64,000 bases of DNA, taken from positions 3,472,001 to 3,536,000 of the forward strand of contig NZ_JAFBBU010000001.1 in assembly GCF_016907385.1 (NCBI RefSeq), read 5' to 3'. The notes beneath the pieces were generated by a model. The model saw only the letters and a program-made list of their open reading frames with translations, made no database searches and was not told where the DNA came from. Positions within the stretch are counted from its first letter, which is position 1, and each line of letters starts with the position of its first letter. This document shows, in pieces, positions 4,891-44,357 of the stretch. Source of the stretch: Subtercola frigoramans. GTDB taxonomy: Bacteria; Actinomycetota; Actinomycetes; Actinomycetales; Microbacteriaceae. A program made the translations under genes and the position numbers.

Positions 4891-4955
4891 ATCGATCGAC
4901 CTGACCCGACACGCCCCGTCCGTGCGGGTGAAACGGCGTGTCGCGTCAGATCGAT
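4891..4955. repeat. Intergenic hairpin element, TGACGCGACACGCC family (copy 1)
   Basis: Left arm 4891-4915 and right arm 4935-4955 are complementary over about 21 bp; the left arm has four extra bases (GACC) after ATCGATC. Each half carries TGAC(C/G)CGACACGCC. The loop is about 19 nt. It lies between two divergent genes, so it is not an ordinary terminator. Three more copies lie at 42200-42256, 42351-42407 and 43411-43467. Confidence 0.8.
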
Positions 4956-13845: not shown

Positions 13846-13911
13846 TCGTGAGGCTGATGCGCCGAGGTGCGCGCGGTGCGCGCGGCTCGATTCGGCGCAG
13901 CGGCCTCACGA
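13846..13911. repeat. Intergenic hairpin element, TGAGGC...GCCTCA family (copy 1)
   Basis: Arms 13846-13865 and 13892-13911 match in 18 of 20 positions; the loop is 26 nt and itself GC-repeat rich. It lies between divergent pyrE and xth. It shares TGAGGC ends and the 13-mer GCGGCCTCACGAG with the element at 45954-46013, while the inner arm sequences differ. Confidence 0.75.
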
Positions 13912-20624: not shown

Positions 20625-20693
20625 CCACGGAATAGTCCACGCTGAATCGCGCGTGCACGCTGCACGCGACACCGCGTGTGGACTATTCCGTGG
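20625..20693. repeat. Long perfect hairpin with nested palindrome in the 326-bp gap 20554-20879
   Basis: Outer arms CCACGGAATAGTCCAC (20625-20640) and GTGGACTATTCCGTGG (20678-20693) are perfectly complementary. Inside lies CGCGTGCA-CGC-TGCACGCG (20650-20668). A degenerate second copy without a right arm follows (CCACGAATCGTCCACC at 20747-20762 and a CTCGCGTGCAC-like core near 20779-20800). Nothing else is seen in this intergenic gap except the promoter region of the aldolase gene. Confidence 0.85.
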
Positions 20694-22052: not shown

Positions 22053-22083
22053 CCCCCTCCCCCCCTCCATCCAAACCGTTGGC

Positions 22084-22134
22084 TGTACCAACTTCTGCGG
22101 CATCGGACGAGGAATAGCAGCAGAAGTTGGTACA
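22084..22134. terminator. 15-bp perfect stem-loop after the threonine aldolase gene
   Basis: TGTACCAACTTCTGC (22084-22098) pairs with GCAGAAGTTGGTACA (22120-22134). With two mismatches the stem extends to about 21 bp. The loop is 21 nt and no U-run follows, so it may be a stem-loop terminator or a member of the intergenic hairpin class seen elsewhere in the window. Confidence 0.7.
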
Positions 22135-22268
22135 CCCAAGTGCGGGGCGGTAGGACGGGACCGAGGAACGATACGCTCGCATGGAATATTGTGCGAGAAC
22201 ACATGTTGTACAGAACGTGGCAACGGCGCCTCACCATCACTGGCAGAGAATCCCAAGGAGCCACAACC

Positions 22269-25313: not shown

Positions 25314-25386
25314 AACGCAATCGTCGGCCCTCGTTCAAACCGACACGCTATTCGCGTCGGTTCGGCTCAGGGCCGACGATTGCGTT
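25314..25386. terminator. 18-bp perfect stem-loop between convergent acs and clpB
   Basis: AACGCAATCGTCGGCCCT (25314-25331) pairs perfectly with its complement at 25369-25386, which is followed by TT. A nested AACCGAC...GTCGGTT hairpin fills the loop. Position between convergent genes suggests a bidirectional terminator; the clpB stop codon (25388) follows at once. Confidence 0.75.
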
Positions 25387-40429: not shown

Positions 40430-41500
40430 TCAGCGCACCCGCCCGAGTACGGTCTCGATGATGGGCCTGAACTCGTCGCGCACTGCGTCGGGCAGGGCAG
40501 ACGAGTCGAGCTCGTCTGCCGCACGGTTGGCGAACTCGCGGGCAAGATCTTCGGCGTAGGCACGTGCTCCACAATCCTCGAGCGCGCGCCTCACGACGGC
40601 GGCCTGCTCCCAGGTGAGGTCGGGCAGCCCGAGCCAGCGTGAGATCTCGAGCCACTCAGGGCGTTCCGAGGCGTACGCGATCAACACCGTGCGCTTGCCT
40701 TCGCGCAGGTCGCCGATCGTGGTCTTGCCCGTGGCCGTCTCGTCTCCGAAGACGCCGAGCAGATCATCCACTATCTGGTAAGCGATGCCGATGTTGCGGC
40801 CAAACGATGCGAGCGCACGCACGGCTTCGTCGCTCGCCCCCGCCAGGACGGCGCCGGCCTCGACAGGCGATTCGAAGGAGTAGACGGCCGTCTTGAGGCG
40901 CTCCATGTCGACGACCTCGTCGACCGAGGGCATCGACCGGTGCTGCGAGAAATCGACGTCGAAGAGTTCACCAGCCGCTGAGGCGAACAGCGCCTCGTCG
41001 AAGATGTCATGCAGGCGTGCGCGAACCTCGCCATCGATGCCACTGCGGTCGAGCAGTCTGAATGCATAGAAGAGGGCGAGGTCACCGGCGATGACTGCGA
41101 CCGAGAGCCCGCGGTGTTCGGCTGCGGGTATCGGGATTCCGGCGGTCTGGGCGAAGTCTCGGTAGACCCCCGAGACGTTGACGCCGCCCCGGCGGATGAA
41201 GTCCCGGTCGATCACGTCGTCGTGCACGATGAGTGCCGTGTGCAGCAGTTCGAAAGCCGCCCCGACGTGCGCCGCAGCCTCGAGATCTGTGCCGCCCAGC
41301 GACTCGTAGGCGCCCATCACCATCGACGGGCGAAAGCGCTTGCCGCCCGAGGTATTCTTTTCCAGCGTCTGCCACAACGTGAGGTACCGCGGGCCGATTG
41401 CAGACGCGCGGTTCTTGGCTAGGCTGAAGAAACGATCGAGCACTTCGTCGACATGTTTCTGCCGCCTGGTGCCTGCGACCACGAGATCCTGTGGGTCCAC
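40430..41500 (-). CDS. crtE: Geranylgeranyl diphosphate synthase
   Basis: About 356 residues. The first Asp-rich motif is VHDDVIDRDFIRRG and the second is YQIVDDLLGVFGDE; GGKRFRPSMVM is the IPP-binding region. It supplies GGPP for phytoene and is first in the crt operon. GTG at 41500 (VDPQDLV) or 41518 could be the start. Only 37 bp separate the 41500 start from the divergent idi start, so at least one transcript probably has little or no leader. Confidence 0.92.
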   Translation of the reverse strand: MDPQDLVVAGTRRQKHVDEVLDRFFSLAKNRASAIGPRYLTLWQTLEKNTSGGKRFRPSMVMGAYESLGGTDLEAAAHVGAAFELLHTALIVHDDVIDRDFIRRGGVNVSGVYRDFAQTAGIPIPAAEHRGLSVAVIAGDLALFYAFRLLDRSGIDGEVRARLHDIFDEALFASAAGELFDVDFSQHRSMPSVDEVVDMERLKTAVYSFESPVEAGAVLAGASDEAVRALASFGRNIGIAYQIVDDLLGVFGDETATGKTTIGDLREGKRTVLIAYASERPEWLEISRWLGLPDLTWEQAAVVRRALEDCGARAYAEDLAREFANRAADELDSSALPDAVRDEFRPIIETVLGRVR

Positions 41501-41537
41501 GTTTCGAGCGTAGTCCACAGACAGAAATGAGAGTGTG

Positions 41538-42089
41538 ATGACAGTCGTCCAAGAACAGGTCGTACTGCTGTCTGACGCCGGATTGCCCATCGGCGTGGCC
41601 GACAAAGCCACCGTGCATACGGCAGATACCCAGCTTCATCTCGCCTTCTCCTGCCACGTTTTCGACCAGGCGGGGCGCCTGCTCGTGACCAGGCGTTCCC
41701 TGGCCAAACGCACCTGGCCGGGGGTCTGGACCAACTCGTTCTGCGGCCATCCCGCGCCGGGTGAGGCGATGGACGACGCCGTCCTGCGCCGCGCCGATGC
41801 CGAGCTCGGTGTCACCCTCGATTCCTTCGAGGTCGCGCTGCCCGACTTCCGCTACCGGGCCGTCGACGCGGCCGGCGTTGTCGAGAACGAGATCTGCCCG
41901 GTCTACACGGCTGTGGTGACGGATGCCCTGCAGCCCAATCCCGACGAAGTCTGTGAATCGCAGTGGGTCGATCCGGATGCCCTGCTCACCGCTATCGCTG
42001 CGACCCCCTGGGCCTTCAGCCCGTGGCTCACCCTGCAGTTGCCGCAACTCGCCCTCGCTCGTCCCCTCCTGCGCACGCAGTCCCGCTGA
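41538..42089 (+). CDS. idi: Isopentenyl-diphosphate delta-isomerase, type I
   Basis: A 183-residue Nudix-fold isomerase that makes DMAPP from IPP. KRTWPGVWTNSFCGHPAPGEAMDDAVLRR holds the catalytic Cys (FCGHP), and ENEICPVY contains the catalytic Glu. It provides DMAPP both for chain starting by CrtE and for the two extra C5 units of a C50 carotenoid, which fits its place beside the crt operon. GTG at 41535 directly before the ATG is an alternative start. Confidence 0.92.
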   Translation: MTVVQEQVVLLSDAGLPIGVADKATVHTADTQLHLAFSCHVFDQAGRLLVTRRSLAKRTWPGVWTNSFCGHPAPGEAMDDAVLRRADAELGVTLDSFEVALPDFRYRAVDAAGVVENEICPVYTAVVTDALQPNPDEVCESQWVDPDALLTAIAATPWAFSPWLTLQLPQLALARPLLRTQSR

Positions 42090-42100
42090 GCTCACCCCCC

Positions 42101-42156
42101 GCGTCGCCCGTCGCCCGTCGCCCGTCACCCGTCAGCCGTCACGCGTCACCCGTCAC
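42101..42156. repeat. Eight tandem 7-bp units, (C/G)CGTC(A/G)(C/G)
   Basis: Eight consecutive units such as CCGTCGC and CCGTCAC with no length change, starting 12 bp after the idi stop. The rest of the gap (42090-42399) holds hairpin elements and no gene. Confidence 0.85.
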
Positions 42157-42199
42157 GCTTCCTGCTCCCGCTCTGCACCTGGCTTGGGCTTCGGCCGCC

Positions 42200-42256
42200 C
42201 GAGCTGACGCCACACGCCCTCCATTCGGGCACCCAAGGGCATCTCGCGTCAGCTCG
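42200..42256. repeat. Intergenic hairpin element, TGACGCGACACGCC family (copy 2)
   Basis: Arms begin CGAGCTGACGC on both sides and match over most of 21 bp (left CCACACGCCCT versus right complement GAGATGCCCT). The loop is 15 nt. It is the most diverged copy. Confidence 0.75.
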
Positions 42257-42350
42257 ATCACACGGCACTCTCCTCCCCGCCGAAGCCACCGTCCAGAACG
42301 AACCCGCCCACATCGCCGAATCACCATGTGTGCGAGCAGCCCCCAGCCCA

Positions 42351-42407
42351 CGAAATGACTCGACACGCCCTCCATCCGTGGGCAGGAGGGCGTGTCACGT
42401 CATTTCG
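42351..42407. repeat. Intergenic hairpin element, TGACGCGACACGCC family (copy 3)
   Basis: Arms 42351-42373 and 42385-42407 match in 21 of 23 positions with an 11-nt loop. The right arm supplies the TGA stop codon of the DUF559 gene (42402-42400). Confidence 0.85.
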
Positions 42408-43344
42408 CGCCACCCCGCCAGGCCGATTCTGCGAGAGCTCGTCGAACACGCTCGACAGCTTCGACTGCCGAAGACGCCATGTGCCGCTTTCGAATGTGCA
42501 CGACGACGAAGCCTGCCCGAACAAGACGCTCATCTCGGTCGAGGTCGTGCTCGTACTGCTCCTCGTTCTCCCGGTGCTGGGACCCGTCATATTCGACCAG
42601 CACGCGCTCGTTGCGGTAGGCCATGTCTGCATAGCCGATCCGACTCCCACTCGAGTCGACCATCTCGGCGCTGAGTTCCGGCTCCGGCAGTCCAGCTCGC
42701 AGCAACGCAAGGCGAAGCCGAGTCTCCTGCCGGGATTCCGCACCCTCGCGCACCAGCTCCAATGCGGTTCGAACCAATTGCGCTCCTCGGCCCGAGTACG
42801 ACGAACACCGGGTCGCGAGCGTTGTGAGATCGACGTATGGCCGGGCATCCGCGGTGTTCGTCACTCTGGGTTCGACGACGAAATGGTCTCCCGCGACAAC
42901 CAATTCGTCGAGCGGCAGGATGCTCGCCAAACCGATCCACGTCGAAGTCGGGTCTGAGACCGGCAGCCCGTATCGGTGAATGACCTGCAGACCTTCGAGC
43001 GAACTCTGGTGCCCGATGACTCCCGAGGTTCGCGGAGCACGGCGTGGTGCGAATATCGACGCGTGCAGCCCAGGCTGCTCTTCGAAGCGGTGCGCCAAAG
43101 GGACTCCCCAGATTTTCGCGGCCGTCAGGTGACTGAAGAACGAACCCGGGCGCATCTGCCGCGCATAAGCGCTCCACGTCGAATATTCGCCAATCGGCTG
43201 CGCTGCAACCACTCGCACACCGCGGAACGGTATCCGGAGATCCCTGCCCCGGAGTCGTTTGACGCTCAGCCCGACGGCGCGACCTTCGGCAACGGTGAAT
43301 GGATGCGTGCCGAGTTGCCTCGGCACGGGCTTGAATTTCGACAT
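42400..43344 (-). CDS. AbiEi-like/DUF559 endonuclease-domain protein
   Basis: About 314 residues. The N-terminal half resembles the winged-helix AbiEi-type domain common in Actinobacteria (VAEGRAVGLSVKRLRGRDLRIPFRGVRVV). The C-terminal ~100 residues are DUF559, a Vsr-like PD-(D/E)XK fold: VLVEYDGSQHRENEEQYEHDLDRDERL, then GFVVVHIRKRH. The acidic EYDG and DLDRD positions and the His suggest an active nuclease. Function in this family is not established. ATG at 43344 is preferred; GTG at 43365 is possible. The gene is bracketed by hairpins 42351-42407 and 43411-43467. Confidence 0.78.
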   Translation of the reverse strand: MSKFKPVPRQLGTHPFTVAEGRAVGLSVKRLRGRDLRIPFRGVRVVAAQPIGEYSTWSAYARQMRPGSFFSHLTAAKIWGVPLAHRFEEQPGLHASIFAPRRAPRTSGVIGHQSSLEGLQVIHRYGLPVSDPTSTWIGLASILPLDELVVAGDHFVVEPRVTNTADARPYVDLTTLATRCSSYSGRGAQLVRTALELVREGAESRQETRLRLALLRAGLPEPELSAEMVDSSGSRIGYADMAYRNERVLVEYDGSQHRENEEQYEHDLDRDERLVRAGFVVVHIRKRHMASSAVEAVERVRRALAESAWRGGAK

Positions 43345-43410
43345 CGAACCATAGTGCCGCCCCACTCGGGGCCGTCACGAGTTATCCACAGGCGATCTAC
43401 GTCAGCCGTG

Positions 43411-43467
43411 CGAGATGACGCGACACGCCCCGTAGAGCCGCACTTGAGGGCGTGTCGCGTCAGCTCG
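43411..43467. repeat. Intergenic hairpin element, TGACGCGACACGCC family (copy 4)
   Basis: CGAGATGACGCGACACGCCC (43411-43430) pairs with its complement at 43448-43467 with one mismatch; the loop is 17 nt. It lies 67 bp before the DUF559 gene start. Confidence 0.85.
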
Positions 43468-43502
43468 TGGCCGGCCACTGGGGCACAGAGCGCCAGGCCG
43501 AT

Positions 43503-44195
43503 TCAGGGCGCGACTACGAGGGTGAATCCGCCGTCGACGAGGCGCACGGAGACCTGGGTGAGGCTCCGGACGACGAGGTCGGCGTCGAGCTCGTGTGCGG
43601 GGTGGGTGCCCGCGATACCCACGGTGAAGCAGCCGGCGGCGCGGCCCGCGGCCAGGCCGGCGGGAGCATCCTCGAACACCACGCAGTCCGCGGCATCGAA
43701 GCCGAGGCGGCGAGCGCCTTCGAGGAATGGGTCCGGGTTCGGCTTTCCCCGGGGCGTGTCGTCGATCGTCACGACGACGCTCGGCGCCGGAAAGTCGGCT
43801 GCACGAAGCCGCACCGGGGCCAGATCACGGTTGCATGACGTGACGATGGCTCGCCGATCATCCGGAAGGCTTGAGATCAACTCTGCTGCACCCTCGAGTA
43901 CGGTGATGCCGTCGACGTCGGCAAGTTCGAGCTGCTGAACGCGGGCGAGTGCTGCTTCGACCTGCGCAGGGGCAACGAGTTCGGCGATGAGCGATCGCGC
44001 AGGCCTGCCATGCATGCCCTCGCGAAACGAGTCATGGATGCCCCACTCCTGCCCCCAACGGATCCACGACCGGTCGACGGCGGGGGTCGAGTCGATGAGT
44101 GTGCCGTCCATGTCGAACAGTGCCGCCCTGAAGACTCGGTCGATCGGGCGGGTGTCGGAGGGGCCGGATTCGGGCGCGGCAGAGGCTGAAGTCAC
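43503..44195 (-). CDS. HAD-superfamily phosphatase (beta-PGM/glycerol-3-phosphatase-like)
   Basis: A 230-residue HAD class IA protein. Motif I FDMDGTLIDSTPAVDRSW, motif II VTSCNRDLA, motif III GKPNPDPFLEGA and motif IV VFEDAPAGLAAGRAAG are all present. It resembles sugar-phosphate or glycerol-3-phosphate phosphatases. The N-terminal 20 residues are extra. Substrate unknown. It is separated from the DUF559 gene by a hairpin element. Confidence 0.85.
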   Translation of the reverse strand: MTSASAAPESGPSDTRPIDRVFRAALFDMDGTLIDSTPAVDRSWIRWGQEWGIHDSFREGMHGRPARSLIAELVAPAQVEAALARVQQLELADVDGITVLEGAAELISSLPDDRRAIVTSCNRDLAPVRLRAADFPAPSVVVTIDDTPRGKPNPDPFLEGARRLGFDAADCVVFEDAPAGLAAGRAAGCFTVGIAGTHPAHELDADLVVRSLTQVSVRLVDGGFTLVVAP

Positions 44196-44357
44196 CCACC
44201 AAGGCTACGGTGTGCCATCAGATCCCTTCGGGACGTCTGGGCGCACCCACGCGCATCGGCACCCCTGGTGGGGAGCCCAGGAGCGTCGCGAGAAGGGTCG
44301 GGAGCCGGACACGGCGCGTCAGTGCGAGTCAGTGCGCGTCGCTGGGGTTAGTGCGCC

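What the first reader, a model, noticed from the sequence alone, without database searches (positions are those of the whole stretch)
42200..43467. DUF559 nuclease-like gene enclosed by three hairpins of one sequence family
Hairpins at 42200-42256, 42351-42407 and 43411-43467 share the half-site TGACGCGACACGCC; a fourth copy is at 4891-4955. Three of four copies seen in 64 kb are within 1.3 kb of the DUF559 gene, one on each side, and the 3' copy provides its TGA stop. The flanking symmetry recalls REP elements with their RAYT enzyme. I infer that the nuclease may recognise, spread with, or be carried by these palindromes. This would be a REP-like system based on a Vsr/PD-(D/E)XK fold and, to my knowledge, undescribed.
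Basis: partly seen in the sequence, partly recalled or inferred. Interest (0 to 1): 0.78.

Follow-up and report, generated by a model that had tools for sequence, protein, structure and literature searches.

The report
Nuclease gene with matching dispersed palindromes
In certain actinobacteria a little-studied kind of gene, a DNA-binding part joined to a part that looks like a DNA-cutting enzyme, often sits between two copies of a short palindrome that is also scattered over the same chromosome, each gene lineage having its own palindrome; this resembles the known REP/RAYT system but with an unrelated enzyme.

Summary
The window (by inference a Subtercola chromosome) has four copies of a 57-bp palindrome, three beside one gene whose product models as an AbiEi-like DNA-binding half plus a Vsr/homing-endonuclease-like half. 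The genome holds at least 21 such places (16 built the model). Of 72 relatives of the gene in named genomes with both flanks held, 40 have matching palindromes on both sides, against 1 of 148 neighbouring ORFs and 0 of 275 other ORFs. Gene lineages differ in palindrome; pairs at 70-97% protein identity share it in 98% of 97 cases. Two further families are multi-copy in genomes with the cognate gene type and absent from those without; a third is dispersed but no clean test. One solitary copy is missing at the orthologous site of a relative; the window unit is missing beside the same neighbour in 11 of 11 other genomes of the genus. The genes mostly stay in one syntenic place. This works like REP/RAYT, but enzyme and end tag differ. 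Binding, cutting and copying are inferred. Orphan copies without a cognate gene exist (G004), and a second mobilising enzyme was not excluded.

The parts
42400..43365 (-). Gene of the AbiEi-like + DUF559/Vsr-like nuclease (ORF as listed; by comparison with relatives the start is more likely the ATG at 43344, giving 314 aa)
   Evidence: ORF; Pfam DUF559; alignment of 58 proteins; structure; fold matches
43411..43467 (.). Upstream palindrome, family F1, 57 bp
42351..42407 (.). Downstream palindrome, family F1, 57 bp; contains the gene's stop codon
42200..42256 (.). Second downstream palindrome, family F1, right arm partly decayed
4897..4953 (.). Solitary F1 palindrome
43382..43390 (-). TGTGGATAA box (identical to the DnaA-box consensus as recalled) between the upstream palindrome and the start codon; a box in the gene's orientation lies in front of 15 of 27 genes of the clade
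   Evidence: one further gene, L140, has it in the opposite orientation; 24 of 73 named genes, searched in the gene's orientation only; background 5 in 573,556 bases, 3 of them in front of DUF559 genes
25316..25384 (.). Palindrome of family F2, which also flanks another DUF559 gene of this genome (2,660,046)
20625..20693 (.). Palindrome like the one upstream of the DUF559 hit at 976,715 of this genome (13 of 14 arm positions; that hit is below the Pfam cut-off)
22079..22139 (.). Palindrome like the one at the 3' end of the DUF559 gene at 3,328,551 of this genome (14 of 14 arm positions)
41535..42089 (+). Left neighbour (NUDIX, idi-like): in 10 of 11 other genomes of the genus it lies next to the right neighbour, and in none of the 11 is a DUF559 gene found there
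43503..44195 (-). Right neighbour (HAD hydrolase), other edge of the empty site

Best explanation
It is a REP-like system with an unrelated enzyme. SHOWN: a chromosomal gene for an AbiEi-like plus Vsr-like protein is often enclosed by two copies of a palindrome of about 50-70 bp; each gene lineage has its own palindrome; in the families counted the palindrome is dispersed, 8 to 92 half-sites per genome in genomes that hold the cognate gene type; copies differ in presence between species. INFERRED: the AbiEi-like half binds the two arms as inverted-repeat half-sites in double-stranded DNA (as AbiEi and Rv2827c bind pairs of 23-bp inverted repeats spaced 3-13 bp), which also gives autoregulation through the upstream copy. 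The Vsr-like half then nicks or cuts at or near the palindrome, and repair or recombination copies the palindrome (more rarely the whole unit) to new places. The gene is a resident, mostly vertically inherited source, and the palindromes are its dispersing satellites.
Against: No binding, cutting or movement was measured. Orphan copies exist: G004 has 12 F1 places but no DUF559 gene flanked by F1, and 4 F2 half-sites without a gene flanked by F2-like arms. The F3-type gene of G011 has no F3 arm in the 2.5-3.6 kb held round it, its upstream side being cut by the contig end. 13 of 121 clade genes showed no palindrome; 32 of 72 named genes and 17 of 27 of the first set fail the strict both-sides test. 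In 400 kb of the own genome taken at spaced places only 5 of 20 strong palindromes match a DUF559-flanking family, against 2 by the reversed control. Most of the more distant relatives read lack such palindromes. The overall rank correlation of protein and palindrome similarity is weak (0.16): the relation is a threshold. No clear target-site duplication was found. Loops of copies within a family mostly differ, which simple cut-and-paste of the whole element does not predict. A Y1 (RAYT) transposase in these genomes was not looked for.
Confidence: 0.68

Rival explanations
1. Operators only: the palindromes are binding sites of the AbiEi-like half, used for autoregulation at the gene and as a small regulon or chromosome-marking set elsewhere. 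They arise and stay by selection, and the nuclease half has another job (defence or repair).
For: Known AbiEi-type antitoxins autoregulate through pairs of 23-bp inverted repeats (PMC7319586 passages). Arms are conserved while loops differ, also between orthologous copies of G001 and G010. Arm positions 4 and 5 fail to pair in 8 and 7 of 16 copies although the CGA/TCG tips are kept, which suits two protein half-sites more than a hairpin.
Against: A downstream copy beside the stop is not needed for autoregulation. Copies come in clusters and up to 92 half-sites per genome and differ in presence between species of one genus. In the idi-HAD gap G001 has a palindrome of its own F3 family and G002 one of another sequence, not tied to a gene, which speaks for insertion rather than a conserved regulon.
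Confidence: 0.2
2. Passenger: the palindromes are non-autonomous elements moved by another enzyme (a Y1 transposase or an unknown one), and DUF559 genes merely became flanked by them.
For: Orphan palindromes exist in G004. Known REPs of the GTAG class are linked to Y1 RAYT proteins (PMC3733652 passages). RAYT genes were not searched for in these genomes.
Against: The palindrome changes with the DUF559 lineage, not with the genome: paralogues in one genome have unrelated palindromes (26 pairs). Other ORFs are almost never enclosed by matching palindromes (1 of 423).
Confidence: 0.09
3. Ordinary transcription terminators or chance inverted repeats of a G+C-rich genome.
For: Genes often end in hairpins (recalled); control ORFs have some strong hairpin downstream in 51 of 148 and 61 of 275 cases, the former partly because they border the same palindromes.
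Against: Sequence-specific arms; fixed length (56-57 bp in 27 of 27 F3 copies read); no T-run after the F1 copies printed; matching copies on both sides; counts far over reversed-pattern controls.
Confidence: 0.03

Closest known systems
REP/REPIN elements with RAYT (TnpA-REP, Y1 HUH transposase)
   Same: Resident gene enclosed by copies of a palindrome that is dispersed in the same genome; many families, each with its own enzyme; palindromes patchy between species (the RAYT side partly recalled, partly from passages of PMC3733652).
   Different: Enzyme models as AbiEi-like + PD-(D/E)XK Vsr-like, not HUH; tips are usually CGA...TCG, not GTAG; the element is one palindrome of about 50-70 bp with arms near 20 bp, not a 20-40-bp REP.
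AbiEi antitoxins (type IV toxin-antitoxin), e.g. S. agalactiae AbiEi and M. tuberculosis Rv2827c
   Different: No AbiEii toxin gene beside it in the window; fused to a nuclease-like half; sites are dispersed genome-wide and lie on both sides of the gene.
EDxHD homing endonuclease I-Bth0305I, and Vsr
   Different: Not seen inside an intron or intein; no cytosine methyltransferase next to the window gene; enclosed by palindromes.
CGTC-tagged REPs without a known enzyme (PMC3733652, passages)
   Same: Dispersed palindromes for which no dedicated enzyme was found.
   Different: Reported there from other phyla; no link to DUF559 was tested here.

Membership tests
REP/RAYT system | Enzyme is a Y1 HUH transposase | tested here: not met
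   Pfam gives DUF559; the model aligns with AbiEi and Vsr/I-Bth0305I
REP/RAYT system | Gene enclosed by cognate palindromes | tested here: met
   40 of 72 and 10 of 27 genes, controls 1 of 148 and 0 of 275
REP/RAYT system | The same palindrome dispersed in many copies | tested here: met
   F1 21 places; F3 12-92 half-sites; F2 13-14; Arthrobacter family 8-29
REP/RAYT system | GTAG or CGTC tag at one end | tested here: not met
   Tips are mostly CGA...TCG, in F3 ATCGA...TCGAT
REP/RAYT system | Gene vertically inherited in one place | tested here: met
   Seven of eight groups compared are syntenic on both sides; the eighth was grouped by a loose likeness of palindromes; the window gene is an exception
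REP/RAYT system | Enzyme binds and processes the palindrome | not testable with these tools
   needs purified protein
AbiE type IV toxin-antitoxin | AbiEi fold | tested here: met
AbiE type IV toxin-antitoxin | Adjacent AbiEii nucleotidyltransferase toxin | tested here: not met
   Window neighbours are NUDIX and HAD proteins; not checked at the other loci
Vsr / EDxHD homing endonuclease | Vsr-like PD-(D/E)XK domain with acidic/His active site | tested here: met
Vsr / EDxHD homing endonuclease | Gene lies in or interrupts its own target, and cleavage drives homing | tested here: inconclusive
   Enclosed by palindromes; empty site known, target not resolved

The most novel reading that the evidence does not exclude
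AbiEi-Vsr nucleases are a second, independently evolved class of palindrome-propagating enzymes. They recognise inverted half-sites in duplex DNA, nick them, and drive the copying of the palindrome to new intergenic places. Several unrelated enzyme-palindrome pairs live side by side in one chromosome, across Microbacteriaceae, Micrococcaceae and some further actinobacterial families.
Probability: 0.58. Interest if true: 0.92.

Novelty: new variant of a known kind. Interest (0 to 1): 0.85.

Why it matters
DUF559 proteins occur in all 13 genomes of the first set and are mostly unexplained: 14 papers of the library name the domain, and the two that also hold a palindrome word concern other things by title and start of abstract. 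A cognate palindrome gives each such protein a predicted DNA substrate that can be tested at once. If the nuclease spreads the palindromes, small dispersed repeats in actinobacteria have a source, and the REP/RAYT logic has been invented twice with unrelated enzymes. The large set of natural enzyme-site pairs also suits a study of how specificity evolves.

Tried and rejected
Chance or terminators: rejected on controls. Rfam on 41500-44300: only a chance match far below threshold. Hairpin-only selection: covariation is modest (9 cells changed on both sides, 19 of 500 shuffles as high; covariation score 11 of 500; but the number of pairs with a change on both sides is no higher than chance, 340 of 500), and arm positions 4-5 are open in about half the copies, so hairpin and duplex dyad both remain possible. 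Insertion into larger inverted repeats: flank complementarity is not above shuffles for F3, F1 in G000 and F1 in G004; G021 is borderline (4 of 300). Target-site duplication: none visible beyond the tips; an ATCGA at one empty site is suggestive only. Plasmid or phage carriage: by tblastn with the window protein 4 of 72,556 plasmid and 1 of 50,697 phage records have a relative, so rejected as the usual vehicle. PDB by Foldseek alone gave no E under 0.001; the second look gave the matches cited.

Unclean spots: of 116 control ORFs, 7 reach score 23, one of them the window gene itself; in the mismatched-pair null two of 150 pairs scored 171 and 146 and one 30, not examined. One search used 49 of 52 DUF559 hits; three long proteins (about 1260 aa) were not fetched. 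One search used 73 and one search used 72 of 80 named loci, the rest lacking flank; four named loci are the same genes as loci of the G set. The split into clade-i and other genes was made by eye. Family F2 was first taken as a presence test; on checking it is not a clean one: G008 has a related gene (69% identity over 221 aa) with F2-like arms that the 20-base pattern misses, and genes of its clade were not looked for in seven of the genomes. Literature searches: of which only the rows listed were seen (for example 12 of 592 and 12 of 1,370); the library holds open-licence papers only.

Full report
WHAT IS THERE. They are copies of one 57-bp palindrome, consensus CGAnnTGACGCGACACGCCC, 17 variable bases, GGGCGTGTCGCGTCAnnTCG. 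The gene between the copies at 42351 and 43411 is on the minus strand and carries DUF559 at its C-terminus. A covariance model from 16 copies finds 21 places in the 3.68-Mb genome; the 16 match by construction, and 150 of 4425 candidates were scored. The genome also has eight DUF559 hits, six over the cut-off. The genus is inferred: named Subtercola loci L213, L218 and L222 give hits identical to those of same-genus handles G008, G010 and G011 (taxonomy).

THE TURNING POINT. In two other genera the model's diverged matches also enclosed a DUF559 gene: G021 (copies 1060 bp apart, as in the window) and G019 (1013 bp apart), each with its own palindrome sequence. A search for palindromes without reference to the window family then showed that many of 49 DUF559 genes in 13 genomes are enclosed by mutually matching palindromes, and that the sequence differs from gene lineage to gene lineage.

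STATISTICS. Eighty named loci were fetched with an alignment of 21 such proteins. Of 73 with both flanks, 62 have a strong palindrome upstream, 50 downstream, 45 both. With the stricter demand that the two sides match in at least 12 of 14 arm positions: 40 of 72 named genes, 10 of 27 genes of the same clade in the first set and 3 of 22 other DUF559 genes, against 1 of 148 neighbouring ORFs and 0 of 275 ORFs in element-rich regions (Fisher 7e-23 for 40/72 against 1/148 and 6e-12 for 10/27 against 0/275). Where both sides have a palindrome (60 genes), the arms agree at 14 of 18 or better in 83%, against 4% of cross-gene pairs. Protein pairs at 70-97% identity share the palindrome in 97.9% of 97 pairs; at 60-70% in 46% of 26, at 50-60% in 30% of 54, under 45% in 2.1% of 4692. 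Twenty-six paralogue pairs within one genome do not share one, so the palindrome goes with the gene and not with the genome. Related species are not independent, and the overall rank correlation is weak (0.16; 0 of 500 permutations as high).

DISPERSAL. Half-sites of the Arthrobacter family occur 8-29 times in 11 of 11 genomes whose DUF559 gene has that palindrome and 0 times in the three others searched, one of them an Arthrobacter whose gene has another palindrome; the reversed pattern gives 0 or 1. Family F3 occurs 92, 75, 18 and 12 times in G001, G010, G008 and G011 and 0 times in the other eight genomes of the genus, controls 0. An F3-type gene was found in just these four: L150, L274 and L148 with F3 palindromes, and L278 of G011 by protein only (71% identity to L150), its contig being cut upstream and no F3 arm lying in the stretch held. 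A gene of G005 at 60% identity to L278 has a different palindrome. The four may be close kin, so this is not four independent events. Family F2 occurs 13 and 14 times in G000 and G003, whose syntenic genes it flanks, 4 times in G004 and 0 times in nine others; it shows dispersal, but is no clean presence test, because G008 has a related gene with F2-like arms too diverged for the pattern and clade members were not looked for in seven genomes. Against the rule, G004 holds 12 copies of the window family without a DUF559 gene flanked by it. In the window six of seven strong palindromes belong to families that flank one of this genome's own DUF559 hits, four families in all (reversed control 0); in 400 kb taken at spaced places only 5 of 20 do, with 2 by the control. 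So the window is rich in them, and most strong palindromes elsewhere are something else.

MOVEMENT. The two neighbours of the window unit are adjacent (13-130 bp between alignments) in 10 of 11 other genomes of the genus; in G003 another ORF lies between. No DUF559 gene was found beside the idi-like gene in any of the 11. In that same gap G001 has a solitary F3 palindrome and G002 a palindrome of another sequence, not tied to a gene. At a second site G001 and G010 share an F3 copy that G008 lacks, although G008 has the F3 gene; the loops of the two orthologous copies differ while the arms agree at all but two positions, and the empty site shows a single ATCGA. The 27 F3 copies read in 20 stretches of G001 are 56-57 bp long, with no shared flank beyond the AT next to the tips. 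In contrast, DUF559 genes of one family are syntenic between species on both sides in seven of eight groups compared. The picture is a resident gene and dispersing palindromes. Whether the window unit was gained in this lineage or lost in the others is open.

A FURTHER CONSTANT. TGTGGATAA, identical to the DnaA-box consensus as I recall it, lies in front of 15 of 27 clade genes in the gene's orientation (one more, L140, in the opposite one), against 5 in 573,556 bases of other loci, three of those five being in front of DUF559 genes. It lies in front of 24 of 73 named genes, searched in one orientation. Its role is unknown; a link of expression to replication is a guess.

RANGE. At E 1e-20, 46 of 246 Actinomycetota genomes (40 of 171 genera) have relatives, with nine candidates scored per genome. 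Of 29 loci read from that search, matching palindromes on both sides are seen by eye in L324, L326, L327, L332 and L341, and in most distant loci none.

NOVELTY. The library gave 14 papers that name DUF559, two of them with a palindrome word, both on other subjects by title and start of abstract. Among the rows listed, searches on REP, RAYT, AbiEi and actinobacterial palindromes showed nothing on this link. Of PMC3733652 only passages were read: GTAG REPs linked to Y1 enzymes, CGTC REPs without a known enzyme, and no occurrence of the word Actinobacteria. Subscription papers are not covered.

VERDICT. The association is shown well beyond chance; that the enzyme recognises and spreads the palindromes is the best reading at about 0.68, with operators-only at 0.2.

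Noticed in passing
window 20625-20693, 22079-22139, 25316-25384: Palindromes of three further families, each also found beside another DUF559 hit of the same genome (976,715; 3,328,551; 2,660,046).
   Followed up: partly
window 13846-13911: A 66-bp palindrome that matches no DUF559-flanking family of this genome.
   Followed up: no
L017 1450-1600 (G000 about 574,850-575,000): Three direct repeats of about 42 bp made of a left half-site of the window family plus spacer, the last belonging to a full palindrome.
   Followed up: no
G000 3.03-3.52 Mb: 10 of 15 separate F1 sites lie in 13% of the chromosome that includes the DUF559 gene (p 2.6e-6, interval chosen after looking); by eye F3 in G001 is spread over 0.1-3.9 Mb.
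   Followed up: partly
L033, L035, L154, L170, L168: DUF559 genes that look shortened or internally deleted while one or both palindromes remain.
   Followed up: no
window 43382-43390 and 5' regions of many relatives: TGTGGATAA box between upstream palindrome and start codon, nearly always in the orientation of the gene.
   Followed up: partly
window 42100-42160: Short degenerate tandem repeats of the type CGTCNCC between the idi-like gene and the first palindrome.
   Followed up: no
L303-L322 (G001): Distant F3 copies that share a loop (L313 and L322; L304 and L310 in part) hint at copying over long distance, while most loops differ.
   Followed up: partly
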